Positions 12,510 through 39,073 of a stretch of 64,000 bases of DNA are shown here, piece by piece. Each line of letters begins with the position of its first letter. Within the stretch, counting starts at the first letter, position 1. The notes below the pieces were generated by a model. The model ran no database searches. It was not told the origin of the DNA and saw nothing but the letters and a program-made list of their open reading frames with translations. The translations under genes were made by a program, and so were the position numbers. The DNA lies in assembly GCA_038503065.1 (NCBI GenBank), contig JBCAMK010000004.1, positions 1,749,001 through 1,813,000 of the forward strand, in the 5' to 3' direction. This DNA comes from Paragyromitra xinjiangensis. Lineage: Eukaryota; Ascomycota; Pezizomycetes; Pezizales; Discinaceae.

Positions 12510-13092
12510 TTTACTTGCTACGCATTTTGAACAATCGTGATGGGCACCATCAAGAGCGACAACCATTATACCAGGACAAATTTTCGAAAATAACTCCACA
12601 ACCAACAGAGATATCATCAAACCGACTTCATATTCGGAATCAGTGCCCCTTTTACCCCCCTCTACACCTCCTGGGAAATCCATCTCTTCTATTACAGAAG
12701 TTGTTGTGATTTCCCCTTCATTTCCCCTCTTTGGGGCTCACCCCACCAAAAAACCTGCCGAGCCCCCCCTCAAAATCGTCGCCAGTCAACCAGTTCTTGT
12801 CCGATTGACTTGAAACTTGCACATCCACGCCGCCTACATACTACGGCCCAGGATTTTTAGTTTCAGCTCAATCGGCCCACAGGCGCCCGAGTAGTACTCA
12901 TTTTATCGCCAGAAATCGCCAGAAATCTCGGAATATTGCAATTCTTACTGACAGCACATCACCTGCTACCTTCTGGAACATTCCATTGGTGGAACCCAAT
13001 CAGCCTCTGGTCTTCAACGTCCAATCAACTTTTGTCTCCACAATTTATTTTTAGTTTCCATTACACGAAAATTTCCGAAAATTTCCGGAACC

Positions 13093-14697
13093 ATGTCGGC
13101 CCACAGGGATGAAATGCAAGACGATACAGAACTTCCCGTCATGCCTCCATCTTCACCTCCCTCCAGCCCTACCATGACGGCCACCAACCGATTCTTGAAC
13201 GTCAGCCAGCATGCTCCAGACATCATGAGCAGCGACCCTATTTCCTCCACCACCAAACCTCTCCCGGCACCATTTGCTCGCAAGATTACACTCCCACCAC
13301 CATTCTTCTCCTCAGCTGGCAACTCCCCCACACATCCTCTATCATTTAGGAACACTTTGGGAGGAATTGACCTCACCTACGAGCCAGAACCAATGACCAG
13401 GACCAGATCCGCAGCTGGCCTGTCAAAGAGAACTTTTGGCAACCAACAGCAATCTGCTCCCCCTCCCAAACGCACTCCCAGCTACTTTGCACTCCCAATG
13501 AGTCAAAACGATGTCAACCAACACCTCATGGCACAGAATGAACACCTGAACAAGGAAATCGCTGAGCTCAAGATGATGGTTAGCAACCTCACCACCCAAA
13601 TCTCAACCTCCCTGGGCTCCATGAGCCACACTGTGATCAGGAAAGTGGATTCAATCCACCGCACCCTGAAAGCAACTCCAGCAGTACCAGCAATCACAGA
13701 AACAACCCTCCCCAACACACCCCAACAACCCAAGAAGAACAAGGGAAAGGGAAAGGCAACTGAAAACGCGCCAGCACCTCCTCCACCTCCTCCACCTCCT
13801 GCACCAAAGACTTGGGCCACTGTGGCGAAAGATGGAAAGCCTGCGAAGGCCAACACTGACACCCCCACAACCCCAACCCCAGAACTCACAAAGAACATGA
13901 TTGTCTAGCGCAGTGGTGATCAGAAAGAAGAAAGCCTCAACCTCCTTGTCCTACGCAACACCATCAACAAAGAACTCCTGACTGCCAAAGCACCAGAAAG
14001 CCTCCAGATCTCAGGAATCTCCTGGAACCTGAAAGCCAACCTCTTGCTTTACACTTGCAATGGATTCACCAGCACTGATTTTGACCTGCACAAGGCCACC
14101 ATTGAGAAAGTTGTGAAGGAAAGCGATGAGAAAGCTCTCTTTCTCTCCAAACAGGAGTCCTGGCACAAGGTTGCCATCCACAGAGTCCCAATCATGGAAT
14201 ACCCTGACAATCGTACCGGCATGAGCGACCTGCAAAACAAACTGGAATACCAAAACAGTGATCTCAAACTGGCAGCACCTCCTAGCTACATGACCCACCC
14301 AGACAAGAGAAATGGAAAGTCCCACAGCTCGGTGATGATTGCCATCACCAGCAAAAGCATGTACAACAAACTGATCAAAAACGGAATCCTCATCTTTGGC
14401 CAAAGACACAGGACCGGAGCCTATTTGACTGCACGCCCTGGTGACCAATGTTCTAACTGTCAAAAGTTTGGACACAAGTTCCAGAGATGCCCCTCCTCCA
14501 AACCAGCCTGTGCCTACTGTGGACACGACCATGCTACCAACAAGCACTTCTGTGGGACTTGCAGAGCCACTGACTCCTGTGCCCACATGCCTCCCAAATG
14601 CATCAACTGTGGTGGAACACATAAAGCCACTGACAGATCCTGTGTTGCACGCCCAGACCTCTCCCGAACTGAAAAAGACATCATGGTGGAACAATGA
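13093..14697 (+). pseudogene. A1 ORF1 (LINE Gag-like), one nonsense codon
   Basis: This aligns to the intact 534-aa ORF1 of A2 and A3. The Gln codon CAG after MIV has become TAG (13906-13908), splitting the frame into 271 codons and a downstream part. Ser/Pro-rich N terminus, coiled-coil segment, poly-Pro run followed by KTWATVAKDG, and three C-terminal zinc knuckles (CSNCQKFGHKFQRC and following) are all recognisable. The role is RNA binding and RNP assembly in retrotransposition. The ORF1 stop overlaps the ORF2 start as ATGA at 14694-14697. Confidence 0.85.
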
Positions 14698-16457
14698 TTG
14701 TGCAACCAAACCCACACAAGATTCGCCTGATGCAACATAACTGCTGAAGAAACCAAAATGTTATGTTATCCCTCCTCGACTCAGCCTCAGAAACGGCTGA
14801 TATAGTTATTATTCAAGAACCTTTTGTTATGCCCGACACTTCTCCTGACGCACCACCAAACTCATGGACATCAATATCACATGGGTCATTCGCAAGGATG
14901 ATTCCAAGCAGCATTAACCGCCCTCGAACCATGACCTTTATATCGAAATCCAACCTCTTCCTGAAATATCAGCCAAGACCCGACATCATCAATAACAAAG
15001 ATGTACAGGCCATAGAGCTGTCAACCCCTTCCATTCCTTCCTTTACCCTCCTCAATATCTACAATGAACAACCTGCTGCATCACAACGAGTTCCTGACAG
15101 CCACCCACAATACACAGTTGAACATGTACTTGTGGGACTAAAGCTACCAGAACGCTGTATCATGGCAGGTGACTTCAATGCCCACCACCCTCTCTGGGAC
15201 TCACGAGTCCGTTCACCAAAACGACATGAAGCACTCCTAGCTATACTAGAAGAGTTCAACTACACCCTCATTAGCGAGCCTGATATTTATACCTACAACT
15301 ACCCTACAGGCACTGGCAGATCCGTTTTGGATCTTGCCTTCTCCTCCTCACCGATGACAGACTTGATTATGAACTGGGCAGTCATGGAAGACCTGGCAAC
15401 AGGATCCGACCATGAAGTTGTTCACATCAGCAAAAGGTTTGGATTTCCGCCCAGTGCCATTTTATGTAATCCCCATTCGCCCAGAGGAGATATGAGAAAT
15501 CCCGATATTGCATTGGAATCAGCTCATCAAACTGCATATTCCCACGCGGGGCTTGGCAGGATCGGATGAGGTTTAACCTTTGGTCTTACATGTTGAATAT
15601 CACAATTTTAAGCCCAAAAACTTGATTTTCAACATGTAAGACCTAAGGTTAAACCTCATCCGATCCTGCCAAGCCCCGCGTGGGAATATGCAGTTTGATG
15701 AGCTGATTCCAATGCAATATCGGGATTTCTCATATCTCCTCTGGGCGAATGGGGATTACATAAAATGGCACTGGGCGGAAATCCAAACCTTTTGCTGATG
15801 CAGTTTGAAATTGCCTCCGACTCTTTGGAATGTGCCCCCCCACCATCAACGGAACAATTTAATTGGGCCAAGGCGGACTGGGACGGCTTCCAACAAACTT
15901 TCACCCTCTCCTCCATCACCACTAAAGACACCTGGGAGTTCCTACACTCCCACCCAACCCATTCAAACCTAGACGAAGCAGCTCAACACCTACGAGATTC
16001 AATCATAGCAGCTGCCAACATCCATGTACCCGAACAAAAACCATCGCCCTTCGCCAAACCTTGGTGGAATGAAGACATAAGAGAAGGACGTAGACACATG
16101 AAGACAGCCCTCAGGGACTGGAGAACAGATCAGACTCCAGCCATGTGGCGAAGATTCAAAAACTTGCGAACATCCTACTTCCGTCGAATCCGAACTGTAA
16201 AGAGTGAACACTGGAACACGTTCCTGGAAGAAGCTCACGGAAAAGATGTCTTCACAGCAATGAGGTATACCAAGCCTCGCAGATGTGAACGCACCCCCAC
16301 CCTTCACAACCCTACACCCTCCAAGAGTCAAAAACCTTTGAAGAGAAAGCCAATCTCTTCCGAGCAACCCTATTCCCTCCCCCTCCCTCAGTGGAACTTG
16401 ATGAACCTGTTCCAGCAGGAAAACACAAGATCCCATGGAAAGACATCACTAATGATA
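14694..16457 (+). pseudogene. A1 ORF2 fragment (endonuclease domain)
   Basis: Reads from the ATGA overlap into the apurinic-like endonuclease domain (QEPFVMP, MAGDFNAHHPLW, GSDHEVV). It is broken in four ways: CGA to TGA 17 codons in (HNC-stop), the foldback insertion after EVV, a 1-nt loss near 16315 relative to A2, and loss of everything after about codon 460 at the B1 junction. The RT and RNase H domains are absent. It is not functional. Confidence 0.85.
15425..15800. mobile_element. 376-bp near-perfect foldback MITE
   Basis: The two arms (about 173 bp each) are reverse complements with one mismatch seen by eye. The ends read CATCAGCAAAAGG and CCTTTTGCTGATG. The loop is about 28 bp. It splits the A1 ORF2 sequence GTTGTTCAGTTTG and duplicates only CA (15423-15424, 15801-15802). 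There is no coding capacity beyond mirrored short ORFs. The near identity of the arms implies recent insertion or recent arm homogenisation. It resembles foldback MITEs; the transposase family is unknown. Confidence 0.9.
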
Positions 16458-17033
16458 ACCGACAACAACAACGCCAAAGTGACTTTTTGGTCACAACTCC
16501 ACCAATACTACTCCGATCGACGAGATTTTTGAAGATTCGGAATCAGCTCACTGCCCCCGTTCGATCCTGCTATTGTACATCTGGTTTGCACCGGATTTGC
16601 AAAAGTTGTTGTCGAATTCGCTGTTTTACCCCTCTTTCCCCCAAAACCACACCAAATCCTGAGATATTGCACAACCTCATATCTTCACCAATACTACTCC
16701 GATTGACTCGACCCCGGGCTTTCTGGAGTCCCCTCACTGTGCCCGTTCGATCGCCCTCTCGTTCGTCCGGATCGGAGCCGATTTGCAAAAGTTGTTGACA
16801 CTTTCTGCTCCACCCACCCCCTCCAGCTCCCTTTAGGGACCCCCCCAAACACCCCACCTCCTCCTGTCGGTTCAGGACCCTTCTCTATGTCTTCCTCTTC
16901 GTCTAGAGGCAGAGGAAGAGGCAGAGGCTTCAGGTCTCCCTCTTCTGTGACCAGCTCACCCCAAAACTCGCTCCAAACGCCCTTTGGCACCCCTACAACA
17001 CCCCCAAACACCCGTTTTTCGCCTCTGCTTCAT

Positions 17034-19337
17034 TTATTTATTTATTTATTTATTTATTGTTCATACTCGCATGCATCCGAATCGGATATGGCGTACAATA
17101 AGAGAAAACCCAACAGGAACGAAAAGAAACAAAACAAACTAACTAAACCCTCCACCAGTTCCATCTCAGCCTCTCTCAGGCTCATCGTCAGTTAATATGA
17201 TAAGGAAAGAAAAGTGACTACCCGAAGATCTCAACCTGTTCCTTTTTCCTTCACCATCGCATGTTTTGGGCCTATAGCCCTCCTTCCACTGAATCCTAAG
17301 ACCCCTGAAGGCTGGTTAAATCATAACAGGTAGGGAAAAACTTAAACAACCATGCGATCCTGACGTTCGCTGGCCCTAAGTCTTGCTTGAGTGAGTGTGA
17401 GGCAACCAGAAAAGTTACCACGATGTGATTCGTTACAGTTCTTGCAACGGATGATAGTGTGGAGGCAAGGAGCTCCCTTGATGGTGCAAGAAGAGGTTGC
17501 GCAGGAGTGAGAGGATGCTGTATGTGGCCCAGCGCAGATGTTGCAGTAAGGGGTTTTGCTGGTACAGCGTTGTTGTGGGTGGCCAAAGGCCAGGCAGGTG
17601 GTGCATTGAGTGTCTGGCCCAAAGCGAAGGTATTTGGTGACTTTGTGACGAAGTCCAAACATGGAGAGCCCTCTCTCAAGGGCAGTGGTGGCAGGCTGTT
17701 TCCCCACAATGGTAAGAACCATGGAGGATGCCTGTTTCCCCTCTCTCTGCTCAGGTCTGGTGAGCCAGCGGGGGTCGCGAAGTAGGGTGGTGCCTGGGTT
17801 GAACTGCTCAACCTCAGACCTGATCTGCTGGAATCCCTCTTCGCCCGAGGGGATGGAGGTGGGGACATTGTGCACAACAACTTGGGTAAGGATGGCTTCC
17901 TTTTCCATGCTGGTGGCATTGGGAATAGTGGTGTGAACAACTTCCTCAAGCTTCTGTCTTTGCTTGAGGAGGGAGTCAGAGGTAGTGGAGGTAACAGCAA
18001 TGAGCTGCACATGGTGGGCAGGAGTGAATCGCACCTCTGCAATCAATGGCCTTTCCAGGGCAGCATTGACTGCATTGCGAATGAGGAGTGGGGTGATGTC
18101 ATCAGGAATGGGTAGACCATTCCTGGTGATAATGAGGGTTCTGTCGCGTTTTGGAGGCGCTGTAGGTTGTTTGGAAGGCTTTGGGGCCTTGTTGGCGGGT
18201 CTGGAAGCCTTTTTAGAGGCAACCTGAGCCCAGGAGGTGGTAGCTGGCGGAGGAGCAGGTGCTGGAGGTAGGGAGAGGTTGGCAGAGGTCAGAATTGTTG
18301 TGAGTGTCCGTTTCTGTTCCAGGTCTGCAACCTTGGAGGTTAGGGTGGCCACCTTTTCCACTAGAGCTGGGTCATTGTGGAAGGTAGGGGCTGGTGGGGG
18401 TGTGAGGATAGCTTTTTCAAGCTGCTTGACGCGTTTGGTGAGTGCCTTGATGAGCCTGTTCTGCTCATCCATCACTGCGAAGAGGGAGGGGTTGTAGTTC
18501 TCCCCAGTACCAATGGCACCAAGGCGATCCAAATTGCTGTTAGAATCATCCATCTGGATGACTGGAGGTAGGGTGGTGGAAAAGGTGAGGGGTCCCTCAG
18601 TGTCCGTCATGTCAGAGTCAGACTCTTCCAAGAGAACAGACCCACTGTCTGTACCAGTGGGGTCTGTGGCGGGCAGGGAGGCATAGTGAGGTAGGGGGAC
18701 TGCTGGGCGAAGTGGCAGGGCTTGTGTAGGTGTCTGCTCTGGGTCTCCATGGAGCAGAGGTGAAAAACGGGTGTTTGGGGGTGTTGTAGGGGCGCCAAAA
18801 GGCGTTTGGAGCGGGTTTTGGGGTGAATTCACAGAAGAGGGAGACTTGAAGCCTCTGCCTCTCCCTCTGCCTCTAGACGAAGAGGAAGACATAGAGAAGG
18901 GTCCTGAACCGACAGGAGGAAGTAGGGTGTGTTGGGGGGTTGCTGGGCCCTGGAGGGGGTCCCTGGCGGAGGGGGGTGGGAAATCGAGCAGAACTTCTGC
19001 AGTTCTGGTCGGATCCGAGCGAACGAGAGGGCGATCGAACGGGCGCGCTGAGGCGGTTCCAAAAAGCCCGGGGTCGAGCTAATCGGACGAAAACTGGTGG
19101 AGTTATGACAAAATGCAGATTGCCAAAGTTTGGTGAGGTTTTTGTTGTTGGGGGGGAAAAGAGGGGTAAAACAGCGAATTCGACAACAACTTTTGCAAAT
19201 CGAGAGCAACCTCGACGTACAAGAGCAGGATCGAACGAGGGCATCGAGCTGATTCCGAATAATCAAAAATCTCGTCGATCGGAGTAGAATTGGTGGAGTT
19301 GTGACCAAAAAGTCACTTTGGCGTTGTTGTTGTCGGT
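17034..19337 (-). mobile_element. LINE B2: complete gag-only family B element
   Basis: A complete 2304-bp unit on the minus strand inside B1 ORF1. It is flanked by the perfect 14-bp TSD CGCCTCTGCTTCAT (17020-17033 and 19338-19351), which fixes both ends. Order: 445-bp 5' UTR beginning ACCGACAACAAC, one 516-aa ORF1, about 300-bp 3' UTR with the CTATAGG/CAAA/CATGCGATGG box (17250-17285), the stem-loop and a TAAA tail. It has no endonuclease or reverse transcriptase sequence, yet the duplication shows it inserted as a unit. Confidence 0.92.
17342..18892 (-). CDS. B2 ORF1: intact 516-aa LINE Gag-like protein
   Basis: Predicted RNA-binding nucleocapsid-like protein of a non-autonomous LINE. N terminus is SSSSSRGRGRGRGF (RGG-like), then a Pro/Thr-rich stretch and an acidic segment. 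A short coiled coil follows (LIKALTKRVKQLEKA), then SWAQVASKKA and a basic linker. A folded central region contains DPRWLTRPEQREGKQASS. Zinc knuckles at about residues 430-497 start CTTCLAFGHPQQRC. The ATG at 18892 lies in the same context in B1, B4, C1 and C2. The frame is fully open and ends RMVV-stop. Family B shows no second ORF, so this is the element's only product. Confidence 0.9.
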   Translation of the reverse strand: MSSSSSRGRGRGRGFKSPSSVNSPQNPLQTPFGAPTTPPNTRFSPLLHGDPEQTPTQALPLRPAVPLPHYASLPATDPTGTDSGSVLLEESDSDMTDTEGPLTFSTTLPPVIQMDDSNSNLDRLGAIGTGENYNPSLFAVMDEQNRLIKALTKRVKQLEKAILTPPPAPTFHNDPALVEKVATLTSKVADLEQKRTLTTILTSANLSLPPAPAPPPATTSWAQVASKKASRPANKAPKPSKQPTAPPKRDRTLIITRNGLPIPDDITPLLIRNAVNAALERPLIAEVRFTPAHHVQLIAVTSTTSDSLLKQRQKLEEVVHTTIPNATSMEKEAILTQVVVHNVPTSIPSGEEGFQQIRSEVEQFNPGTTLLRDPRWLTRPEQREGKQASSMVLTIVGKQPATTALERGLSMFGLRHKVTKYLRFGPDTQCTTCLAFGHPQQRCTSKTPYCNICAGPHTASSHSCATSSCTIKGAPCLHTIIRCKNCNESHRGNFSGCLTLTQARLRASERQDRMVV

Positions 19338-21466
19338 CGCCTCTGCTTCATGGAGACCCAGAGCAAACACCTACCCAAGCCCTGCCACTTCGCCCAGCAG
19401 TCCCCCTACCTCACTATGCCTCCCTGCCCGCCACAGAGCCTACAGACAGTGGCTCTATCCTCCTGGAAGAGTCTGACTCTGACATGACAGACACTGAGGG
19501 ACCCCTCACCTTCTCCACCACCCTACCTCCAGTCATCCAGATGGACGACTCCAACAGCAACCTAGATCGCCTTGGTGCCATTGGTACTGGGGAGAACTAC
19601 AACCCCTCCCTCTTCGCAGTGATGGATGAGCAGAACAGGCTCATCAAAGCACTCACAAAACGCGTCAAACAGCTTGAAAAAGCTATCAACACACCCCCAC
19701 CAGCCCCTACCTTCCACAACGACCCAGCTCTAGTGGAAAAGGTGGCTACCCTCACCTCCAAGGTTGCAGACTTGGAACAGAAACGGACTCTTACAACCAT
19801 TCTGACCTCTGCCAACCTTCCCCTACCTCCAGCAGCTGCTCCCCCGCCAGCCACCACCTCCTGGGCTCAGGTTGCCTCTAAAAAGGCTCCCAGACCCGCC
19901 AGCAAGGCCTCCAAGCCTACCAAACAACCAGCAAACCCCCCAAAACGCGACCGTACCCTCATCATTACCAGGAATGGTCTACCCATTCCTGATGACATCA
20001 CCCCACTCCTCATTCGCAATGCAGTCAATGCTGCCCTGGAAAGGCCATTGATTGCAGAGGTGCGATTCACACCAGCTCACCATGTGCAGCTCATTGCTGT
20101 CACCTCCACTACCTCTGACTCCCTCCTCAAGCAAAGACAGAAGCTTGAGGAAGTTGTTCGCAACACCATCCCCAATGCCAACAGCATGGAGAAGGAAGCA
20201 GTCCTGACCCAGGTTGTTGTGCACAACATTCCCACCTCCATTCCCTCTGGCGAAGAGGGCTTCCAGCAAATCAGATCTGAGGTTGAGCAGTTCAACCCAG
20301 GCACCACCCTACTCCGCGACCCCGCTGGCTCACTAGACCTGAGCAGAGAGAGGGGAAACAGGCATCCTCCATGGTTCTTACCATTGTGGGGAAGCAGCCT
20401 GCCACCACTGCCCTTGAGAGAGGGCTCTCCATGTTTGGACTTCGTCACAAAGTCACCAAATACCTTCGCTTTGGACCAGACACCCAATGTACTACCTGCC
20501 TGGCCTTTGGCCACCCACAACAACGCTGTACCAGCAAGACACCCTTCTGCAACATCTGTACTGGGCCTCATACAGCATCCTCCCACTCCTGCGCAACCTC
20601 CTCTTGCACCATCAAGGGAGCTCCCTGCCTCCACACCATCATCCGTTGCAAGAACAGTAACGAACCGCATCGTGGTAACTTTTCTGGTTGCCTCAAACTC
20701 ACCCAAGCCAAACTTAGTGCCAGCGAATGTCAGGATCGCATGGTAACTTAAGTTACACCCCACCCTTATTGATGTATCCAACCTTCAGGGGTCTTCGGAC
20801 CTGGTGGAAGGAGTGCTATAGGCACAAAGCAAGCGATGGTAAAGGAAGAATGCCCAGGGTAGTCTTGACACTGTGAGAAGGAGTCACTAGATCGGGGTAT
20901 TAACACATTCACTGATGACAACCTACAGCGACAACCATTCTACCAGGACAAATTTTCGAAAATAACTCCACAACCAACAGAGATATCATCAAACCGACTT
21001 CATATTCGGAATCAGCGCCCCCTTTTAGCCCCTTCTACACCTCCTGGGAAATCCATCTCTTCTATTACAGAAGTTGTTGTGATTTTCCCCTTCATTTCCC
21101 CTCTTTGGGGCTCACCCCACCAAAAAACCCGCCGAGCCCCCCCTCAAAATCGTCGCCAGTCAACCAGTTCTTGTCCGATTGACTTGAAACTTGCACATCC
21201 ACGCCGCCTACATACTACGGCCCAGGATTTTTAGTTTCAGCCAAATCGGCCCACAGGCGCCCGAGTAGTACTCATTTTATCGCCCAAAATCGCCAGATAT
21301 CTCGGAATATTGCAATTCTGACTGACAGCACATCACCTGCTACCTTCTGGAACATCCCATTGGTGGAACCCAATCAGCCTCCAGTCTTCAACGTCCAATC
21401 AACTTTTGTCTCCACAATTTATTTTTAGTTTCCGTTACACGAAAATTTCCGAAAATTTCCGGAACC

Positions 21467-23071
21467 ATGTCGGCCCACGGGGATGAAATGCAAGACGACA
21501 CGGAACTTCCTGTCGTACCTCCATCTTCACCTCCCTCCAGCCCTACCATGACGGCCACCAACCGATTCTTGAACGTCAGCCAGCATGCTCCAGACATCAT
21601 GAGCAGCGACCCTATTTCCTCCACCACCAAACCTCTCCCGGCACCATTTGCTTGCAAGATTACACTCCCACCACCATTCTTCTCCTCAGCTGGCAACTCC
21701 CCCACACATCCTCTATCATTTAGGAACACTTTGGGAGGAATTGACCTCACCTACGAGCCAGAACCAATGACCAGGACCAGATCCGCAGCTGGCCCGTCAA
21801 AGAGAACCTTTGGCAACCAACAGCAATCTGCTCCCCCTCCCAAACGCACTCCCAGCTACTTTGCACTCCCAATGAGTCAAAACGATGTCAACCAACACCT
21901 TATGGCACAGAACGAACACCTGAATAAGGAAATCGCTGAGCTCAAGATGATGGTTAGCAATCTCACCACCCAAATCTCAACCTCCCTGGGCTCCATGAGC
22001 CACACTGTGATAGGGAAAGTGGATTCAATCCACCGCACCCTGCAAGCAACTCCTGTCGTACCAGCAATCACAGCAACAACAATCCCCACCGCTCCCCAAC
22101 AACCCAAGAAGAACAAGGGAAAGGGAAAGGCAACTGAAAACGCGCCAGCACCTCCTCCCCCCCCTCCACCTCCTGCACCAAAGACTTGGGCCACTGTGGC
22201 GAAAGATGGAAAGCCTGCGAAGGCCAACACTGATACCCCCACAACCCCAACCCCAGAACTCACAAAGAACATGATTGTCCAGCGCAGTGGTGATCAGAAA
22301 GAAGAAAGCCTCAACCTCCTTGTCCTGCGCAACACCATCAACAAAGAACTCCTGACTGCCAAAGCACCAGAAAGCCTCCAGATCTCAGGAATCTCCTGGA
22401 ACCTGAAAGCAAATCTGCTGCTTTACACTCACAATGGATTCACCAGCACTGACTTTGACCTCCACAAGGCCACCATTGAGAAAGTTGTGAAAGAAAGCGA
22501 TGAGAAAGCTCTCTTTCTCTCCAAACAGGAGTCCTGGCACAAGGTTGCCATTCACGGAGTCCCAATCATGGAATACCCTGACAATCGTACCGGCATGAGC
22601 GACCTGCAAAATGAACTGGAATACCAAAACAGTGATCTCAAACTGGCAGCACCTCCTCGCTACATGACCCACCCTGACAAGAGAAATGGAAAGTCCCACA
22701 GCTCGGTGATGATTGCCATCACCAGCAAAAGCATGTACAACAAACTGATCAAAAACGGGATCCTCATCTTCGGCCAAAGACACAGGACCGGAGCTTACTT
22801 GACTGCGCGCCCTGGTGACCAATGTTCTAACTGTCAAAAGTTTGGACACAAGTTCCAGAGATGCCCCTCCTCCAAGCCAGCCTGTGCCTATTGTGGACAC
22901 GACCATGCTACCAACAAGCACTTCTGTGGGACTTGCAGAGCCACTGACTCCTGCGCCCACATGCCTCCCAAATGCATCAACTGTGGTGGCACACATAAAG
23001 CCACTGACAGATCCTGTGTTGCACGCCCAGACCTCTCCCGAACTGAAAAAGACATCATGGTGGAACAATGA
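21467..23071 (+). CDS. A2 ORF1: intact 534-aa LINE Gag-like protein
   Basis: Likely single-stranded nucleic-acid chaperone of the LINE RNP. In order: Ser/Pro/Thr-rich N terminus, predicted coiled coil (QNEHLNKEIAELKMMVSNL, residues about 148-175), GKGKATENAP basic linker, poly-Pro, KTWATVAKDG, and a central region with RYMTHPDKRNGKSHSSVM. Three zinc knuckles fill about residues 450-520 (CSNCQKFGHKFQRC, CAYCGHDHATNKHFC, CINCGGTHKATDRSC). The start ATG follows a repeated AAAATTTCCG leader conserved in all four A copies. Its TGA stop overlaps the ORF2 ATG by 4 nt. Confidence 0.92.
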   Translation: MSAHGDEMQDDTELPVVPPSSPPSSPTMTATNRFLNVSQHAPDIMSSDPISSTTKPLPAPFACKITLPPPFFSSAGNSPTHPLSFRNTLGGIDLTYEPEPMTRTRSAAGPSKRTFGNQQQSAPPPKRTPSYFALPMSQNDVNQHLMAQNEHLNKEIAELKMMVSNLTTQISTSLGSMSHTVIGKVDSIHRTLQATPVVPAITATTIPTAPQQPKKNKGKGKATENAPAPPPPPPPPAPKTWATVAKDGKPAKANTDTPTTPTPELTKNMIVQRSGDQKEESLNLLVLRNTINKELLTAKAPESLQISGISWNLKANLLLYTHNGFTSTDFDLHKATIEKVVKESDEKALFLSKQESWHKVAIHGVPIMEYPDNRTGMSDLQNELEYQNSDLKLAAPPRYMTHPDKRNGKSHSSVMIAITSKSMYNKLIKNGILIFGQRHRTGAYLTARPGDQCSNCQKFGHKFQRCPSSKPACAYCGHDHATNKHFCGTCRATDSCAHMPPKCINCGGTHKATDRSCVARPDLSRTEKDIMVEQ

Positions 23072-26000
23072 TTGTGCAACCATACCCACACAAGATCCGC
23101 CTGATGCAACATAACTGCCGAAGAAACCAAAATGTCATGCTATCCCTCCTCGACTCAGCCTCAGAAACGGCTGATATAGTTATTATTCAAGAACCCTTTG
23201 TTATGCCCGATACTTCCCCTGACGCACCACCAAACTCCTGGACATCAATATCACATGGGTCATTCGCAAGGATGATTCCAACCAGCATTAACCGCCCTCG
23301 AACCATGACCTTTATATCGAAATCCAACCTCTTCATGAAATATCAGCCAAGACCTGACATCATCAATAACGAGGATGTACAGGCCATAGAGCTGTCAACC
23401 CCCTCCATTCCTGCTTTTACCCTCCTCAACATCTACAATGAACAACCTGCAGCATCACAACAAGTTCCTGACAGCCACCCACAATACACAGTTGAACGTG
23501 TACTTGTGAGACTAAAGCTACCAGAATGCTGTATCATGGCAGGTGACTTTAATGCCCACCATCCTCTCTGGGACTCACGAGTCCGTTCACCAAAACGACA
23601 TGAAGCACTCCTAGCTATACTAGAAGAGTTCAACTACACCCTCATTAACGAGCCTGACATTTATACCTACAACTACCCTACAGGCACTGGCAGATCCGTT
23701 TTGGATCTTGCCTTCTCCTCCTCACCGATGACAGACTTGATTATGAACTGGGCAGTCATGGAAGACCTGGCAACAGGATCCGACCATGAAGTTGTTCAGT
23801 TTGAAATTGCCTCTGACTCTTTGGAATGTGCCCCCCCACCATCAACAGAACAATTTAATTGGGCCAAGGCGGACTGGGACGGCTTCCAACAAACTTTCAC
23901 CCTCTCCTCCATCACCACAAAAGACACCTGGGAGTTCCTACACTCCCACCCAACCCATTCAAACCTTGACGAAGCAGCTCAACACCTACGAGATTCAATC
24001 ATAGCAGCTGCCAACATCCATGTACCGAAACGAAAACCATCGCCCTTCGCCAAACCTTGGTGGAATGAAGACATCAGAGAAGGACGCAGACACATGAAAA
24101 CAGCCCTCAGGGACTGGAGAACAGATCAGACTCCAGCCATGTGGCGAAGATTCAAAAACCTGCGAACATCCTACTTCAGACGAATCCGGACAGCAAAGAG
24201 TGAACACTGGAATACATTCCTAGAAGAAGCTCACGGCAAAGATGTCTTCACAGCAATGAGGTACACCAAGCCTCGCAGATGTGAACGCACCCCCACCCTA
24301 CACAATCCCACCACCCTCCAAGAATCCAAAACCTTTGAAGAGAAAGCCAATCTCTTCCGAGCTACCCTATTCCCTCCCCCTCCCTCAGTGGAGCTTGATG
24401 AACCTGTTCCAGCAGGAAAACACAAGATCCCATGGAAAGACCTCACCAACGATGAGATTCGGAAAGCAATCATGACCTCAGCACCAAAGAAAGCACCTGG
24501 ACCAGATGGAATTGGCTTCCTATGCATTCAAAAAGCATATCAAGTTGACCCGACCCAGTTCAACTCCTTCTACAAGGCCACCATGAAAGCAGGATACCAC
24601 CCAACCATATGGCGTGAAGCTACAATTGCAATCATCAGAAAGGCCAATAAACCTGACTATACGATAGCAAAAGCCTACCGACCAGTATCACTCCTCAACT
24701 GCCTCGGCAAAGTCTCAGAAAAGATCATAGCAACCCGATTAGCCTTCATGGCAGAAAGATATCATCTTCTCCATAGATGGCAAATTGGAGGTCGACCAAA
24801 AAGATCAGCTGTCGACGCTTGTATGCTTATCAGCACACTTGCAGATTCAGCCAAAAAGAAAGGCCTAACACTCACTGCACTTTGCATGGACGTGAAAGGT
24901 GCATATGACTTTGTATTCAAACGACGACTGATCAAGACCATGATAGAACTGGACCTCCCACTTCCCATCTGCCGATGGGTGGACTCCTTCCTCAGCAATC
25001 GAACAGCCTGCATGGCATTCGACGGTGAAATTGAAGCCATGGCACCCATTCAAACTGGTATCCCACAAGGATCTCCCACATCCCCTATCCTCTTCCTCTT
25101 ATACCTGGCTCCGTTGTTCAACGAGCTAGAAGAAAAATATCCTGATTCCACCTGCCCAAGCTACGTCGATGATGTAGGCCTCCTGGTTACAGGAAAGTCT
25201 GAAGCAGAAAACTCTCGAACCCTGGAAGCAATGGCACTCACCTCCTCTGAATGGGGTGAGAAAAATGCCTTGTACTTTGACAATCCAAAGACAGAACTCA
25301 CCCACTTCCACTCCAGACGAACAACTGACACCTCTGATGAAGCCAAAGTCACAATGCCTGATGGCAACGTGATTGAGGCTGCAGATGTCCAGCGTTGGCT
25401 GGGTGTCTGGTTTGACCGCAAACTCACATTCAAACATCATGTCAAGACCAAAGCTGCCTCCGCACTTAGAGCCTTCATGGCTATCTCCCGTCTTGCAAAC
25501 ACAGAAAAAGGACTGAGTTACAAGGCACTCCGCCAACTCTACCAAACCTGTGTAGCCACCATCAATGACTTCGGAGCTGAAGTGTGGTGGAACGGACAGA
25601 TTGGACTCAGCAACACCATCCAGAAAGTCCAGAATCAAGCAATGCGCAAGATTGCTGGAGCCTTCAGAACCTCACCTGTTCATGCCCTGGAAGCAGAGAC
25701 AGGACTCCTCCCTACCCCAATCAGATTGGACGAGCTGCAAAGGAAATATGCACTCCGAGTCCTTTCCCTACCAAACACCCATCCCATCACCTCCCTCTGC
25801 CCTGATTCCTGGCCTTCAACCCAGGAAAACGACAACCCAGATAACTCCAACAACACTACATGGCACCAAGCCACCACCACCTCCCCCAAATATGAAACAA
25901 GACTACATAGGATACTGGCATCTACCAACAAATGGATCCAGCCACAATCAGAGATTGAATGCGTAGATAATCTGGCTTGTCCACCATGGCACCAAAACAC

Positions 26001-27074
26001 CATTGACATCTACATCGACCCTGCAGATAAAGACGCAGCAGCAGAAAACCATCGGAACCACACAGCTGGAGACAGTACTAGGACTGATCGCCTAGTCTTC
26101 TACACTGATGGCTCCCTCCTGGAAGGCAAAACAGGAGCTGGAGTTGCTGGTTTCCGCAGAGGTCACTCTGTGGTCAACAAATCCTACCACCTTGGCAAAG
26201 AAAATGAAGTCTTTGACGCAGAACTTTATGGTATTGCAAAAGCCACTAAGCATGCAATCCTACAAGTACAGCGATCACCTCACCTGACAAACGATGTCTA
26301 CATCTACTGTGACAACCAAGCAGCAGTGCAACGAATGACCACACCCTCCCCATGCCTGGCCAACACCTGGTCATTGAAGCGCGCAACAACTTGCTTCAAC
26401 TCGAAGAAAGTGGCATAAAAACCCATGTCTATTGGGTACCAGGACATGTCAATGTTGCCGGCAACGAGCTAGCTGATAAGCTCGCCAAGATAGGAGCCCA
26501 AGGAACCAGGATAGAATCAGATGTCCTCACCTCCATCACATACCTCAAGAGAAACATCAAGGAACACTCCCTGACGACATGGAAAGCCAAATGGAAGCAG
26601 GCAAAGAAAGGCCGCAGCTACTACGGACAACCACCACTGCAACCAAGTGCCCCCCTGAGGGGAAACATCCCCAGAAGAACAGCCTCCACCATCACTCAAA
26701 TGAGAACCGGACATGGATACACCAAATCCTACCTTGCCAGAATCCCCACCAACAACATTGAAGACACCAAATGCAAATGTGGCTTCGATAACCAAACACC
26801 TCAACACCTACTGCTAGAGTGTGGCCAGGAACCACTTCCTACCCATCGCAAAGCACTCAAAGCAGCCCTCAAACCAATGCCACTCACATGGAGAACTGCG
26901 ATGCATACCAATGCTGGCCTGGCTGCCACCATTGAAACATTCCTCACACCAACCCAAACCGCTACCAGAAATTGGACCCTGGAACGACAAGAAGACAACA
27001 GGTACTCCCACCAAGGAATATACCTCTACAATGACGAAGAGGAAGAGAGCGAAAGAGAAAGAGAGAACGGCTAG
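23068..27074 (+). pseudogene. A2 ORF2 (EN-RT-RNase H), one frameshift
   Basis: Reads 23068..26418, then resumes in another frame to 27074. Compared with A3, one C is missing near 26346 in the ACACCC-TCCCC run, inside RNase H after CDNQAAVQRMTTP. Otherwise complete: endonuclease motifs GDFNAHHPLW (about residue 157) and GSDHEVV (about 237); RT GIPQGSP (about 663) and YVDD (about 700); RNase H YTDGS (about 1011), DNQAAV (about 1081) and PGHVNVAGNELAD; C-terminal CKCGFDNQTPQHLLLEC. One indel separates it from function, so the insertion is young. Confidence 0.92.
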
Positions 27075-29293
27075 TAAGAACAGGCTATAGGCCCAAAGCA
27101 TGCGATGGTGAAGGATGATAGAAAACTGATGAATACCCTGAAAGTGGGGTGAGATGGAACATGACCGTGTGGAGGATTTCTGATTATAAAAACTGTTTGA
27201 GTATTTCCCTATGATTTTACCCTGTCGATTGATAATCCGTTCGTTTCTACTGTTCGGTAGAACTTTGAGATAAAAATTGTTATTTCCTCTTTTGTTATTT
27301 TCCTTTTGTTATTTTGTTTTGATTTATGTTTTGTTTTCGCAAAAGGATATCTGATGTGGATATCTACTAATTAGTTGGTTCATGTTCGCGGAGGATTTTC
27401 TTTTGTTAGTTATTGTACGGTCATGGGGTTTCCTTTCATTGTATGCCATATCCGTTACGGATTTATGCAATATGAGCAATAAATAAATAAATAAATAACA
27501 TTCACTGATGACGAGCTTAGAAGAGGCTGAGTTGGAACTGGTGGTGGATTAGTTAGTTTTGTTTTGTTTTCTTTTATGTTCCTGTTGGGTTTTCTTCTGC
27601 TGTACGCCATATCCGTTTCGGATGCATGCGAGTATGAACAATAAATAAATAAATAAATATAACATCACCAATGTGTAATGGGTATGCCGTTACTGCCTCT
27701 AGCATGCGTAGTAGAATAGGGCCGGACTGATGGGACAGTAGGAGCCTGCATTGGTGGGGTTGCTCCCACATGCAGAGAGCTACCGTGTCCCACTGATCTG
27801 GTTGATACAGAGGAACCGCATGTGCGTCAGCTGACGAGCTGGCAGCACATAGACAGCTGCATCTACCACTCCGAGGAAGTGGTAGAGTTCTGAATCAACC
27901 TGTGCAGTATGCATCAGTGGAAGCTGATAGGCAACGCACTGGCAGCGCTATCTACTAGTAAAACACATGCGGATTAGACTGAACTGCGCTGTGCATGTAG
28001 GACTGCAGTGTGCAGGACTATGCCGGTGGTTCATAGAGTCTAGAGTGGTCAGATTGCTAATGGAGGTGCGGCAGCTCTTGGAGCATAGCCCCCGGAAGTA
28101 CAGAAGGTCTTCCGGAGTAGAACACCAGTCCATTTGGCAATGGGACTCAGGGTCAAACCCAGTCCCCCACTAGAGCACGGCAGAGCGAGGACTGCGGAAC
28201 GCAGGTGTTAAATACATTGCGAATGCTCCACCCTGCTGCTCTGTTCTTCATGCGATAGTTGAGCCTTCGAACCGAACCCACACCTGCCTAATTAGGAAAC
28301 CCAACCACCACGCAACACAGAAATCTCGCGATAAGTCTTTATTTTACAGCTTCAAGTTACCCCGCACCGAGTGAAAGTGAGGACTCGCATCCCACACCAT
28401 CACTTCGTTTCGCCCACACCTGTTCTTTACAGAACCCACACCCACCTCACCTGCCCGGACTAATTTAATCATGGTTGCGAGACCCTGATGTCCTCCAAAA
28501 GGACCTCTTCCCACCAGGGCACCCGTGAGAATAGCCCAACCAAGTCCACCCTACAAACTACCATCCCGTTCCCCCGCCTCAGGGACTCCAGACATTCATT
28601 AGTCGCAAGCGACGTCGTCCAACAAGTAGGCTCAACCATCCCAGACTCTCAAGATCTCGAAATGGGAGAATCCTCCTCTATGGGAGCAGCCGGCATATCC
28701 AACCTCTCCCTTCCACCCCTCACCATTCCCTAGACCTACACAGGAGGCACACAATTCGGGTCCCAGCCGCCTAACCTGACTCTCCCAGACGAGCCCTATT
28801 CCTCGGATTGCCCCCCAGCGATCCACGAGGACTTTGTTAAAGATTACCAATTTAACATCGATTACACACATCACTGAGTCCGCCTCACGGAACAAGGAGC
28901 CCACTGGCCGACCATCAATTACAACACCTGGATGACCAGAAACAGCAACCTCATGATGTTTAATACCTTCGTTGACAAGTTGGTCGACCTGGACAAAACT
29001 TTCAGCCGACGGATAATAGGCCTAGAGCAGTCTCAAAATGCCCTGGCAAGACAGTTCTCACAAGCCATGAAAAACGGGGCCCCCAGTACCAACCCTCCCA
29101 GAGGAAGAACTGAAAACCGCCCGCCACCCCCTCCAAACGCACAAACAAACACACCCACCCCACCAGTCACAAATACGAACTCTGCCCCATCTGCACCCCA
29201 AACCCAAACACAAACCCCACCCCAGCCCTCAATGTCCACCCCTTCAGCCTCCTGGGCAGCGATTGCAGCGGCCGAAGCTGATAAATTCACCAC

Positions 29294-31543
29294 TATTTAT
29301 TTTTATTTATTTATTTATTTATATTTCATACTGTATAAATGCGAAATGGATATGGCATACATATAGAGAAAACCAAACAGAAAACAAAATCAAAACGCAA
29401 CTAACTACCCGATTCCTCCCACTGGGTCCAACTCAGCCCTCTATGGCTATTCTTCAGTTTATGTGTTAATACCCCGATCTAGTGCCCTCTCCCACAGGAC
29501 AAGACTACCCTGGGCATTCTTCTTTCACCAGCACATGCTTTGTGCCTATAGCACGTCCCTCCAACAATCCGAGCACTGTCAAGGGAGATGAAGTCGTAAG
29601 GGTGGGGGGAGACTTAGATTTGCATGCGATTCTGTCTTTCGCTTGCAGCTAGTCTTGCTGCTGTGAGTTTGAGGCACTCAGGGGAGTTACCAAGATGTTG
29701 TTCGCCACAGTTAGCGCAGCGGAGGATGGTGTGGAGGCAGGGAGATCCTTTGACATGGCAGGAAGGTTTGCCGCAGGTGTGTGTTGACACTGTATGAGGC
29801 CCAGCACAGATGGTACAGATAGGGGTCTTGCTGGTACAGCGCTGTTGGTGGTGGCCAAAGGCCAGGCAGTGGGTGCATTGGGTGTCCTGTCCAAAGCGAA
29901 GGTATTTGGAAACCTTGAGGCGGCATCCGAAAAGGGAGAGCCCTCTCTCAAGGGCAGTGGTGGCAGGTTGTTTCCCCTGGATGGTCAAAACCATGGAGGA
30001 AGCCTGCTTGCCCTCTCTCTGCTCTGGTCTGGTGAGCCAGCGAGGGTCGCGCATGAGGGTGGTGCCAGGGTTGAACTGTTCAACCTCTGACCTGATGTGT
30101 TGAAATCCTTCTTCGCCAGAAGGAATGGAGGTGGGTACGTTGTGCAGGACAACCTGAAAGAGAGTGACCTCTTTCTCCAGGCTGTTGGCATTGGGGATGG
30201 TGGATCTCACAATCTCCTCAAGCTTTGATCTCTGCTTGAGGAGTGTGTCGGAGGTGGTGGTGGTGACAGCAATGAGCTGCACATGGTGAGCAGGTGTAAA
30301 TCGCACCTCTGCAATCAAGGGGCTTTCTAAGGCTGCATTGACTGCGTTGCGAATGGTGAGTGGGGTGACATCCTCAGGAATGGGTAGACCATTCCTGGTG
30401 ATGATAAGGGTGCGGTCGCGCTTGGGAGGGTTGGTGGGTGGTTTGGGGGCCTTGGAGGCCTTGGGGGCGGGTCTGGAGGCCTTTTTGGAGGCAACCTGAG
30501 CCCATGAGTGAGGTGCAGGTGCTGGGGCAGCTGCTGGTGGTGGGGGGAGGTTGGCAGTGGCCAGAATGCTAGTTAAGGCGTGTTTCTGCTCCAAGTCTGC
30601 CACCTTGGTCGTGAGGGTTGCTACCTTCTCCACAAGAGCTGGGTCATTGTGAATGGTAGGGGGAGGTGGGGGGTTCCTGGCTGCCTTCTGGAGGCGTCTG
30701 ATTTCCCTCTCCAGTTGCTTCACATAGAGGCGATACTGGTGGAGGTCTCTGGCAATTTGGATCACAGCATCTGCGATCTTGATAGTGGTGTTGAGGGTGG
30801 GAGCCACGAAGTCATCCATGCTCTCATGCTCTGACTCTGACTCTGTCATCTCATGGTCTTGAGAATCTGGAGGGAGTGGGAGTGACTCATAGTCCTGAAG
30901 GGCAACAGCAGGACGCAGTGGGAGGGTTTGAGTAGGGGTCTGCTCTGGGTCTCCATGGTGGAGGGCAGAAAGTCGCAAATTGGGGGGTGTGGTGGGTGCT
31001 GTGGGTGTTGTGGGGGTGGTGAAGGGCGAAATTGCGCCAGGAGAGGGAGACTGAAAGCCTCTGCCTCTCCCTCTGCCTCTGGACGAAGAGGAAGACATGG
31101 AGGAGGGTCCTGAACCGACAGGAGGAGGTGGGGTGTATGGGGGGGTTGTTGTGGGGCCCTGGGGGGGTCCCTGGCGGGTGGGGGAGGGTGGGAGCAGGAA
31201 GTGTCAACAACTTCTGCAAATCTGCTCCGATCCGGACGAACGTGAGGGCGATCGAACGGGCTCGGTGTGGGGAGTCCAAAAAGCCCGTGGTCGAGCTAAT
31301 CGGACAAAAACTCGTGGAGTTATGAGGTCCTGCAAGATCTCAAGATTTGAGGTGTAGGGGGGAAAAGAGGGGTAAAATAGCGAATTCGACAACAACTTTT
31401 GCAAATCGAGAGCGACCTCGACGTACAATAGCAGGATCGAACGGGGGCAGTGAGGCGAGTCCGAATAACCAAAAATCTCGTTAATCGGAGTAAAACTGGT
31501 GGAGTTATGACCAAAAAGTCGTTTCGTGGTTGTTGTTGTCGGT
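29294..31543 (-). mobile_element. LINE C1: complete gag-only family C element
   Basis: A complete 2250-bp minus-strand unit inside D ORF1 with the perfect 14-bp TSD GATAAATTCACCAC (29280-29293 and 31544-31557). The 5' end ACCGACAACAAC is shared with family B. There is a 445-bp 5' UTR, one 494-aa ORF1 and an approximately 320-bp 3' UTR with the shared box (29527-29562). The terminal stem-loop is imperfect here (ATCCA-TTT-CGCAT). It ends in a TAAA tail. There is no ORF2. Confidence 0.92.
29614..31098 (-). CDS. C1 ORF1: intact 494-aa LINE Gag-like protein
   Basis: Homologous throughout to the B ORF1 but a distinct subfamily. N terminus is SSSSSRGRGRGRGFQSPSPG, followed by a Thr/Pro-rich stretch and an acidic segment. 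The coiled coil differs (LYVKQLEREIRRLQKAA). SWAQVASKKASRP and DPRWLTRPEQREGKQASS are conserved. Zinc knuckles at about residues 407-475 start CTHCLAFGHHQQRC. The protein ends NRMQI. The frame is fully open and nearly identical to C2. It is the only product of the element. Confidence 0.9.
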   Translation of the reverse strand: MSSSSSRGRGRGRGFQSPSPGAISPFTTPTTPTAPTTPPNLRLSALHHGDPEQTPTQTLPLRPAVALQDYESLPLPPDSQDHEMTESESEHESMDDFVAPTLNTTIKIADAVIQIARDLHQYRLYVKQLEREIRRLQKAARNPPPPPTIHNDPALVEKVATLTTKVADLEQKHALTSILATANLPPPPAAAPAPAPHSWAQVASKKASRPAPKASKAPKPPTNPPKRDRTLIITRNGLPIPEDVTPLTIRNAVNAALESPLIAEVRFTPAHHVQLIAVTTTTSDTLLKQRSKLEEIVRSTIPNANSLEKEVTLFQVVLHNVPTSIPSGEEGFQHIRSEVEQFNPGTTLMRDPRWLTRPEQREGKQASSMVLTIQGKQPATTALERGLSLFGCRLKVSKYLRFGQDTQCTHCLAFGHHQQRCTSKTPICTICAGPHTVSTHTCGKPSCHVKGSPCLHTILRCANCGEQHLGNSPECLKLTAARLAASERQNRMQI

Positions 31544-37895: not shown

Positions 37896-38642
37896 TTATT
37901 TATTTATTTATTGTTCATACTCGCATGCATCCGAATCGGATATGGCGTACAATAAGAGAAAACCCAACAGGAACGAAAAGAAAACAAAACAAACTAACTA
38001 AATCCTGCGCCAGTTCCATCTCAGCCTCTCTCAGGCTCATCGTCAGTTGATATGTTAAGGAAAGACAAGTGACTACCCGAAGATCTCAACCTGTTCCTTT
38101 TTCCTTCACCATCGCATGTTTTGTGCCTATAGCACTCCTTCCACTGAATCCTAAGACCCCTGAAGGCTGGTTAAATCATAACAGGTAGGGGAAAACTTAA
38201 ACAACCATGCGATCCTGACGTTCGCTGGCTCTAAGTCTTGCTTGAGTGAGTGTGAGGCAACCAGAAAAGTTACCACGATGCTTTTCGTTACAGTTCTTGC
38301 AACGGATGATAGTGTGGAGGCAAGGGGCTCCCTTGATGGTGCAAGAGGAGGTTGCGCAGGAGTGAGAGGATGCTGTATGTGGCCCAGCGCAGATGTTGCA
38401 GTAAGGGGTTTTGCTGGTACAGCGTTGTTGTGGGTGGCCAAAGGCCAGGCAGGTGGTGCATTGAGTGTCTGGCCCAAAGCGAAGGTATTTGGTGACTTTG
38501 TGACGTAGTCCAAACATGGAGAGCCCTCTCTCAAGGGCAGTGGTGGCAGGCTGCTTCCCAACAATGGTAAGAACCATGGAGGATGCCTGTTTCCCCTCTC
38601 TCTGCTCAGGTATAGTGAGCCAGCGAGGGTCGCGAAGTAGGG
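37896..38642 (-). mobile_element. LINE B3: 3' third of a gag-only family B element
   Basis: The 3' end inserted in G1 gag (TAAA tail at 37896 on). It contains the stem-loop region, the shared 3' UTR box (38100-38134) and the ORF1 C-terminal part. It ends abruptly at 38642 against the 3' tail of A3. Its 5' part is not on the other side of A3. Confidence 0.85.
38197..38642 (-). pseudogene. B3 ORF1 C-terminal fragment
   Basis: About 148 codons of the family B Gag-like protein, from LLRDPRW through the zinc knuckles (CTTCLAFGHPQQRC, CNICAGPHTASSHSC) to RMVV-stop. Very close to B2. It is truncated on the N-terminal side by the A3 junction. Confidence 0.85.
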
Positions 38643-39073
38643 TTATTTATTTATTTATTTATTGCTCATATTGCATAAATCCGTAACGGATATGGCATAC
38701 AGTGAAAGGAAACCCCATGACCGCACAATAACTAACAAAGGAAAATCCTCCGCGAACATGAACCAACTAATTAGTAGATATCCACATCAGATATCCCTTT
38801 TGCGAAAAACAAAAAAAAACATAATTCAAAACAAAATAACAAAAGGAAAATAACAGAAGAAGAAATAACAATTTTTATCTCAAAGTTCTACCGAACAGTA
38901 GAAACGAACGGAATATCAATCGACAGGGTAAAATCATAGGGAAATACTCAAACAGTTTTTATAATCAGAAATCCTCCACATGGTCATGTTCCATCTCACC
39001 CCACTTTCAGGGTATTCATCAGTTTTCTATCGTCCTTCACCATCGCATGCTTTGGGCCTATAGCCTGTTCTTA

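What the first reader, a model, noticed from the sequence alone, without database searches (positions are those of the whole stretch)
17034..19337. Gag-only half-LINE family B: a mobile unit with one intact ORF1 and no reverse transcriptase
B2 is bounded by a perfect 14-bp TSD and contains only 5' UTR, a 516-aa zinc-knuckle ORF1, a short 3' UTR and a tail. B1 and B4 have the same layout once inserts are removed, so the short form is what moves, not a one-off deletion. Preservation of the ORF1 frame suggests the protein helps its own mobility. Mammalian HAL1 (ORF1-only L1) and Drosophila HeT-A are precedents. I do not know of a described fungal equivalent.
Basis: partly seen in the sequence, partly recalled or inferred. 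Interest (0 to 1): 0.88.

Follow-up and report, generated by a model that had tools for sequence, protein, structure and literature searches.

The report
Gag-only retrotransposon family in fungus
A fungal jumping gene that kept only its RNA-packaging protein and lost the copying enzyme has spread to many chromosomes, probably by borrowing the enzyme of a related element with matching ends, and both sit in one block per chromosome that may be the centromere.

Summary
Window 17034-19337 (minus strand) is a complete 2.3-kb unit: 5' UTR, one 516-codon ORF, short 3' UTR and TAAA-type tail, inside a perfect 14-bp target-site duplication. The B/C 5' end occurs 130 times in the genome (control 0). Of 42 loci examined, 30 have distinct 12-15 bp duplications, so the short form itself retrotransposes. 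Of 65 listed B/C-type 3' ends, none carries ORF2 (61 join ORF1; 4 are too short to tell). A sister gag-only family (C, about 66% protein identity) shares the layout, so ORF2 was probably lost before B and C split. ORF1 is under purifying selection (median dN/dS 0.11 within B, 0.26 B versus C). The predicted protein has helices, two RRM-like domains and zinc knuckles. The probable enzyme donor is family A (ORF1 plus EN-RT-RNaseH), whose UTRs are homologous to those of B and C. All listed A, B and C copies fall in one 31-207 kb block on each of 22 contigs; other LINEs also concentrate there, so this is not specific to B. I call it a HAL1/HeT-A-like half-LINE. Trans-mobilisation and centromere identity are inferred, not shown.

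The parts
17034..19337 (-). B2: complete gag-only element
   Evidence: perfect 14-bp TSD and same boundaries as other copies
17020..17033 (.). target-site duplication, copy 1 (CGCCTCTGCTTCAT)
   Evidence: read
19338..19351 (.). target-site duplication, copy 2
   Evidence: read
17342..18892 (-). ORF1 (Gag): 516 codons plus stop; helices, two RRM-like domains, CCHC-type knuckles
   Evidence: knuckles read by eye; no Pfam hit
18893..19337 (-). 5' UTR, starts ACCGACAACAAC; contains two diverged internal repeats
   Evidence: first 210 nt homologous to A 5' UTR
17061..17341 (-). 3' UTR with collinear blocks shared with A, ends near GCCATATCCGATTCGGATGCATGC
17034..17060 (-). TAAA-type 3' tail (boundary approximate)
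16458..17033 (+). B1, 5' part (B2 is inserted here)
19338..20919 (+). B1, middle part
27498..27659 (+). B1, 3' end beyond the A insert
50935..52762 (-). B4, ORF1 and 3' part
59345..59845 (-). B4, 5' part beyond the A insert
37896..38643 (-). B3, 3' part only
29295..31543 (-). C family gag-only element, 15-bp TSD
47959..50204 (-). C family gag-only element, 14-bp TSD
20927..27498 (+). A: ORF1+ORF2 LINE inserted in B1 (ORF2 frame broken near its end)
38643..45218 (-). A: ORF1+ORF2 LINE with open 1340-aa EN-RT-RNaseH ORF2
52768..59342 (-). A: ORF1+ORF2 LINE inserted in B4 (ORF2 has one stop)
12555..16455 (+). A: truncated copy with an inverted segment

Best explanation
B, with its sister family C, is a non-autonomous half-LINE lineage. 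Its RNA, made from its own 5' UTR, encodes only an ORF1/Gag protein that should coat it. The endonuclease-reverse transcriptase of the related autonomous family A then recognises the shared 3' end and copies the RNA into DNA by target-primed reverse transcription, giving 12-15 bp target duplications and a TAAA-type tail. SHOWN by sequence: gag-only layout, many independent insertions, no ORF2 in the copies examined, selection on ORF1, 5' and 3' UTR homology with A, one block per chromosome shared with A. INFERRED: A supplies the enzyme in trans, B Gag acts on B RNA, the blocks are centromeres.
For: TSDs of 12-15 bp at 30 of 42 B/C loci, all 30 different; mismatched flank pairs give 9 of 1722. 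130 5' ends and 218 A/B/C 3' ends, 0 and 0 in reversed-pattern controls. 34 of 53 listed 5' ends on C1-C12 have a 3' motif 2202-2293 bp downstream. None of 65 listed B/C-type 3' ends has ORF2; 61 join ORF1. A versus B/C 3' UTR: local scores 58-66, 0 of 500 shuffles reach them (max 32); the unrelated LINE D scores 30-35. A versus B and C 5' UTR, first 210 nt: 73 and 54, 0 of 1000 shuffles each. Two of the three near-complete A copies in the window show duplications of about 14-15 bp, read by eye. Open A ORF2: 6 of 36 matches span 1-1340 without a stop. Median dN/dS 0.108 B-B, 0.166 C-C, 0.258 B-C; wrong-frame control on B2-B4 pairs 2.2 and 3.5 against 0.12; codon-position differences 59:59:360 in copies sampled by their 3' end.
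Against: No experiment shows trans-mobilisation. A and B ORF1 are only about 25-29% identical, no closer than B to LINE D at about 30%. Whole-length local 5' UTR alignment is weak (A-B 30, 6 of 500; A-C 25, 51 of 500). The shared 3' end folds no better than shuffles (z 0.99, -0.40, -1.47, -0.52). UTR yardsticks are uneven: 5' UTR distances are below dS in all three comparisons; 3' UTR distances are below dS within B2 and within B4 but above it between them. Single pairs range up to dN/dS 0.58 in B-B. 12 of 42 loci gave no qualifying TSD, and the third A copy in the window shows none.
Confidence: 0.85

Rival explanations
1. B is a SINE-like passenger. Its ORF1 is a relic of a deletion and has no role.
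For: Only the 3' end is often needed for LINE recognition (recalled); 12 of 86 ORF1 matches carry stops; 4 of 13 pieces sampled by 3' end have frame-shifting gaps and 1 has a stop.
Against: Median dN/dS 0.11-0.26 in B-B, C-C and B-C and 0.085-0.117 in B subfamilies; B and C diverged to dS about 0.79 with ORF1 kept.
Confidence: 0.07
2. An autonomous B with ORF2 exists (in copies not read, in unassembled DNA or in other strains), and the short form is a recurrent deletion product.
For: Only the first 100 of 218 3' ends and of 130 5' ends were listed. Four of the 65 B/C-type 3' ends are 3' UTR fragments that cannot tell. Relatives in Maublancomyces gigas have unknown context.
Against: 61 of 65 listed B/C-type 3' ends join ORF1 and none joins ORF2; translated search of the 27 fetched loci found only ORF2 pieces of A or short nested pieces; B and C 3' UTRs look alike from just after the ORF1 stop, as expected of one old deletion.
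Confidence: 0.08
3. B is mobilised by a LINE other than A, for example the D or E families.
For: B ORF1 is as close to D ORF1 (about 30%) as to A ORF1 (about 25-29%); D-related LINEs share the same blocks.
Against: D 3' UTR scores 30-35, near the shuffle tail, against 58-66 for A. The E 3' end and the D and E 5' ends were not tested.
Confidence: 0.06
4. The blocks are generic heterochromatin or TE refuges rather than centromeres, and A/B/C accumulate there without targeting.
For: 57 of 108 non-A reverse-transcriptase matches also lie in or within 20 kb of the blocks, and 53 of 54 D-related LINE matches lie in or within 60 kb of them. No chromatin data.
Against: One block on each of 22 contigs; 46 of 108 other RTs are in the arms, while all 42 A-like RTs are inside or within 20 kb.
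Confidence: 0.3

Closest known systems
HAL1 (half-L1) of mammals
   Same: Encodes only ORF1, non-autonomous derivative of a LINE; reported to have arisen several times (PMC5753468, passages seen; primary paper Bao and Jurka 2010 not held).
   Different: No Pfam family matched B or C ORF1; B/C is a lineage of two diverged families with a selected Gag, in a fungus, confined to one block per chromosome.
HeT-A of Drosophila (with TART/TAHRE)
   Same: Gag-only non-LTR element that needs another element's RT; conservation of Gag suggests negative selection; shares one chromosomal niche with its partners (PMC5537684, passages seen).
   Different: B makes internal insertions with TSDs, not additions at chromosome ends; its niche is a putative centromere; contig ends carry TTTAGGG arrays.
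Celine LINE of poplar centromeres
   Same: LINE nested within itself in centromeres (PMC11288735, passages seen).
   Different: The full-length element has ORF1 and ORF2; the passages seen describe no gag-only partner.
Grem-LINE1 of Mucor
   Same: Fungal LINEs abundant in pericentric regions (PMC7377519, passages seen).
   Different: Has ORF1 and ORF2 in the passages seen; different fungal phylum (recalled).
SINEs that share a LINE 3' end
   Same: 3' end shared with the partner LINE (recalled).
   Different: SINEs encode no protein (recalled); B keeps a 516-codon ORF and also shares the 5' UTR.

Membership tests
half-LINE (HAL1-type, in the broad sense) | Encodes ORF1 only; no EN or RT | tested here: met
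   Of 65 listed B/C-type 3' ends 61 join ORF1, 4 too short, 0 with ORF2; 35 of 42 loci start at the reference's first base
half-LINE (HAL1-type, in the broad sense) | The short form itself retrotransposes (TSDs, tails, many sites) | tested here: met
   30 of 42 loci, all different TSDs; control 9 of 1722
half-LINE (HAL1-type, in the broad sense) | Derived from, and sharing UTRs with, an autonomous LINE | tested here: met
   UTR sharing with A met; direction of descent is inferred
half-LINE (HAL1-type, in the broad sense) | Moved in trans by that LINE's ORF2 | not testable with these tools
   needs an assay
HAL1 proper (L1-derived) | L1-type ORF1 | tested here: inconclusive
   No Pfam family matched B or C ORF1 at E 0.01, which is only absence of a match; predicted tandem RRM-like domains plus knuckles
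HeT-A / telomeric retrotransposons | Addition at chromosome ends | tested here: not met
   All listed copies are internal; 30 of 42 loci have TSDs
SINE | No coding capacity | tested here: not met
   ORF1 under purifying selection
LINE ORF1 proteins of RRM plus CCHC type | RRM domain(s) and zinc knuckles | tested here: inconclusive
centromeric retrotransposon | One cluster per chromosome | tested here: met
   22 of 22 contigs, 31-207 kb each, from capped lists
centromeric retrotransposon | CENP-A chromatin at the cluster | not testable with these tools
   needs ChIP-seq or CUT&RUN

The most novel reading that the evidence does not exclude
A two-component centromeric retrotransposon system analogous to the Drosophila HeT-A/TART pair at telomeres. 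A supplies the endonuclease and reverse transcriptase. B/C supplies most of the Gag, which directs both RNAs to centromeric chromatin, so the gag-only element is kept by selection as the targeting partner rather than as a parasite, and helps to build the centromere.
Probability: 0.15. Interest if true: 0.92.

Novelty: new variant of a known kind. Interest (0 to 1): 0.72.

Why it matters
Few gag-only LINEs are known, and HeT-A is the best-studied one (recalled). A fungal one with many copies, two diverged families under selection, a recognisable enzyme donor with open copies and a one-block-per-chromosome niche would allow direct tests of why an element that has lost its enzyme keeps its Gag, and whether Gag sets where LINEs land. 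If the blocks are centromeres, it is also a tractable case of LINE-rich centromeres.

Tried and rejected
Rfam search of 16401-28000 gave only two weak matches (E 0.61 and 0.73, far below their cut-offs), so no known ribozyme or RNA element was found. The shared 3' hairpin is not more stable than shuffles, so I make no structural claim. Pfam gave no domain for B, C or D ORF1, and the PDB sequence search gave only GCN4 coiled-coil constructs at E 0.39-0.76. The two ORF1 protein searches returned only Maublancomyces gigas proteins (3, then 4), with no genomic context and only the 7997 best candidates scored. A TTAGGG telomere search found nothing; the ends that I read carry TTTAGGG. Morchella importuna as host was dropped: an Atg17-like neighbour is 63% identical to its protein. 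An autonomous B was looked for behind 5' ends with no 3' end nearby: one B 5' end lies 4788 bp from an A-type 3' end, but it is a B fragment, an inverted C fragment and an A fragment in a row (L082). Paper searches for fungal or gag-only half-LINEs and for fungal centromeric LINEs showed no fungal gag-only LINE in their listings; only titles and abstract starts were seen there, and subscription papers are not held. On re-checking I lowered the novel case from 0.20 to 0.15 and raised the generic-refuge rival from 0.25 to 0.30, because D-related LINEs also concentrate in the blocks.

Full report
OBSERVATION. Window 17034-19337 (minus strand) was read directly. It starts ACCGACAACAAC, has a 516-codon ORF (17342-18892), a short 3' UTR and a TAAA-repeat tail, and is flanked on both sides by CGCCTCTGCTTCAT (17020-17033, 19338-19351). 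Self-comparison of the window shows that it sits inside another copy, B1, which is itself split by a 6.57-kb element A. B4 is split by A in the same way; B3 is a 3' part only. Two further gag-only elements of a sister family, which I call C (29295-31543 and 47959-50204), are 94% identical to each other and about 77-82% to B at the DNA level; B and C ORF1 proteins are about 66-67% identical.

GENOME-WIDE COPIES. The window is contig 4, 1749001-1813000, of a 48.2-Mb, 22-contig genome. The ORF1 search gave 86 matches (84 of 581 candidates scored, so a lower bound; some are fragments), 74 of them without in-frame stops. The 33-nt B/C 5' pattern with up to 2 mismatches occurs 130 times, 0 in the reversed control. 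The 3' pattern common to A, B and C occurs 218 times, 0 in the control. Only the first 100 of each were listed.

THE SHORT FORM MOVES. Of 42 loci around ORF1 (30 B, 12 C), 30 (21 B, 9 C) have an exact 12-15 bp flanking repeat, all 30 different; pairing flanks of different loci gives 9 of 1722. Of the 42, 35 start at the first base of the reference. The 12 without a qualifying repeat are L004, L005, L010, L012, L013, L017, L021, L023, L030, L035, L037 and L039. Several copies have a few untemplated bases between the repeat and the 5' end. So these are independent retrotransposition events of the short unit.

NO ORF2 FOUND. Among the 100 listed 3' ends (contigs C1-C12) I classed 65 as B/C type and 35 as A type by their sequence. 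Of the 65, 43 directly follow a listed ORF1 match, 2 are window copies split by A, and the other 20 were fetched as 18 loci. All 20 are 3' parts of B or C, often 5'-truncated or interrupted: 16 reach into ORF1 and 4 (in L043, L047, L053 and L055) hold only 3' UTR, so they cannot tell. None has ORF2. Of 53 listed 5' ends on C1-C12, 34 have a 3' motif 2202-2293 bp downstream. Of the other 19, 10 lie in the 9 loci: one is a complete copy whose 3' motif had escaped the pattern (L081), and the others are B/C pieces that are truncated or interrupted. Inserts were A, B or C pieces where they could be identified; L076, L077, L080 and L083 hold stretches that match nothing in my A-E library. The remaining 9 include the window copies B1 and B4; L017 and L035 hold two more; the rest were not read in full. 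A translated search of these 27 fetched loci with the ORF2 proteins of A, D and E found only A pieces and short nested pieces.

THE PARTNER. A carries ORF1 and a 1340-aa ORF2 with endonuclease, reverse transcriptase and RNase H domains; 6 of 36 genome matches span all 1340 residues without a stop. The 3' UTRs of A and B/C share collinear blocks, including GGCTATAGGCCCAAAGCATGCGATGGTGAAGGA (32 of 33 identical, A versus B2) and the terminal region. Scores of 58-66 exceed all 500 shuffles (at most 32), while the unrelated LINE D scores 30-35 against A, B2 and C, reached by 3-8 of 500 shuffles. The first 210 nt of the 5' UTRs align end to end with scores 73 (B) and 54 (C) against shuffle maxima of 32 and 21 and a maximum of 16 in 300 stretches of host DNA. 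A local alignment of the whole 5' UTRs was weaker (A-B 30, 6 of 500; A-C 25, 51 of 500), so the 5' result rests on the anchored alignment. By eye, two of the three near-complete A copies in the window have duplications of about 14-15 bp; the third shows none. The ORF1 proteins of A and B are only about 25-29% identical, no closer than B is to D, so the split is old or ORF1 has changed fast.

SELECTION. Nei-Gojobori dN/dS (my script) over copies with open frames: B-B median 0.108 (435 pairs, range 0.02-0.58), C-C 0.166 (45 pairs, range 0.08-0.41), B-C 0.258 (300 pairs, range 0.22-0.29; median dS 0.79). The 30 B and 12 C copies are the best protein matches, which biases towards conservation; 2 C copies with stops were dropped, and the C frames include some codons upstream of the likely start. 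As a check, copies picked by their 3' end (11 loci, 13 pieces at 85% identity or more; the C-type and 3'-UTR-only loci dropped out) differ from B4 at codon positions 1:2:3 as 59:59:360, with one stop and frame-shifting gaps in 4 of 13 pieces. By subfamily: B2 0.107, B4 0.085, B2-B4 0.117; reading the B2-B4 pairs in the wrong frames gives 2.2 and 3.5 instead of 0.12. UTR distances are an uneven yardstick: the 5' UTR differs less than dS in all three comparisons, and the 3' UTR less within B2 and within B4 but more between them, so UTR constraint or recombination is likely. Pairs are not independent.

LOCATION. I looked over the rows of these lists and saw none elsewhere, but the lists are capped. 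Controls: of 150 reverse-transcriptase matches (467 candidates), all 42 that I labelled A-like are in or within 20 kb of the intervals; of the 108 others 57 are in or within 20 kb, 5 near and 46 in the arms. Against specificity: of 54 matches to the ORF2 of LINE D, 42 are inside the intervals, 6 within 20 kb, 5 within 60 kb and 1 in an arm, so LINEs in general concentrate there. The intervals were defined by A/B/C themselves, so the informative point is one tight interval per contig. Six of 14 contig ends that I read carry TTTAGGG arrays, both ends of C21 among them, so at least some contigs are near chromosome length. One block per chromosome is what centromeres look like, but there are no chromatin data here.

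HOST. Probably a pezizomycete: the only ORF1 relatives found were from Maublancomyces gigas, and an Atg17-like gene in the window is 63% identical to a Morchella importuna protein. That these are pezizomycetes is recalled.

MECHANISM. Most likely: B RNA binds its own Gag, A ORF2 protein recognises the shared 3' end, nicks the target and reverse transcribes, leaving 12-15 bp duplications. Shared UTRs and tails, similar duplications and a shared niche support this; the trans step and the role of Gag are inferred. The bold reading is that B/C Gag directs both RNAs to centromeres, as HeT-A Gag does for TART at telomeres (PMC5537684, passages seen). That other LINEs reach the same blocks weakens it.

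NOVELTY. Gag-only LINEs are known (HAL1, HeT-A), and LINE-rich centromeric or pericentric regions are known (Celine, Grem-LINE1). I saw no fungal gag-only LINE in the listings of the paper searches, which cover open-licence papers only. I rate it a new variant of a known kind.

Noticed in passing
L062, L066, L068, L069, L070, L073 (contig ends): Telomere arrays are TTTAGGG (plant-type), not TTAGGG, in what appears to be a pezizomycete fungus; 6 of 14 ends read.
   Followed up: partly
window 60911-61722 and L083 (middle part): Repeat stretch with units of roughly 120-130 bp, open in one frame with repeats such as QRIDHMAEAAEAQAANRPYGG; a similar repeat-coding stretch lies in the insert inside a C element on C7, so it may be mobile.
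   Followed up: no
genome C18:885137, C14:1113232, C20:863043, C6:1391146: ORF1 copies about 79-87% identical to B and 81-82% to C: possible B/C recombinants or a third subfamily.
   Followed up: no
window 15425-15800: A 376-bp segment of the first A copy matches its own reverse complement.
   Followed up: no
window 18893-19337: B 5' UTR contains two diverged internal repeats, like a two-monomer promoter.
   Followed up: no
window 36160-38001: Gag-like ORFs of what looks like an LTR element, interrupted by B3 (judged by eye).
   Followed up: no
window 31544-35850 and 45099-47768; genome C17:215551: Other LINE families (D, E) with distinct ORF2; D-related copies also concentrate in the A/B/C blocks, with one of 54 in an arm.
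   Followed up: partly
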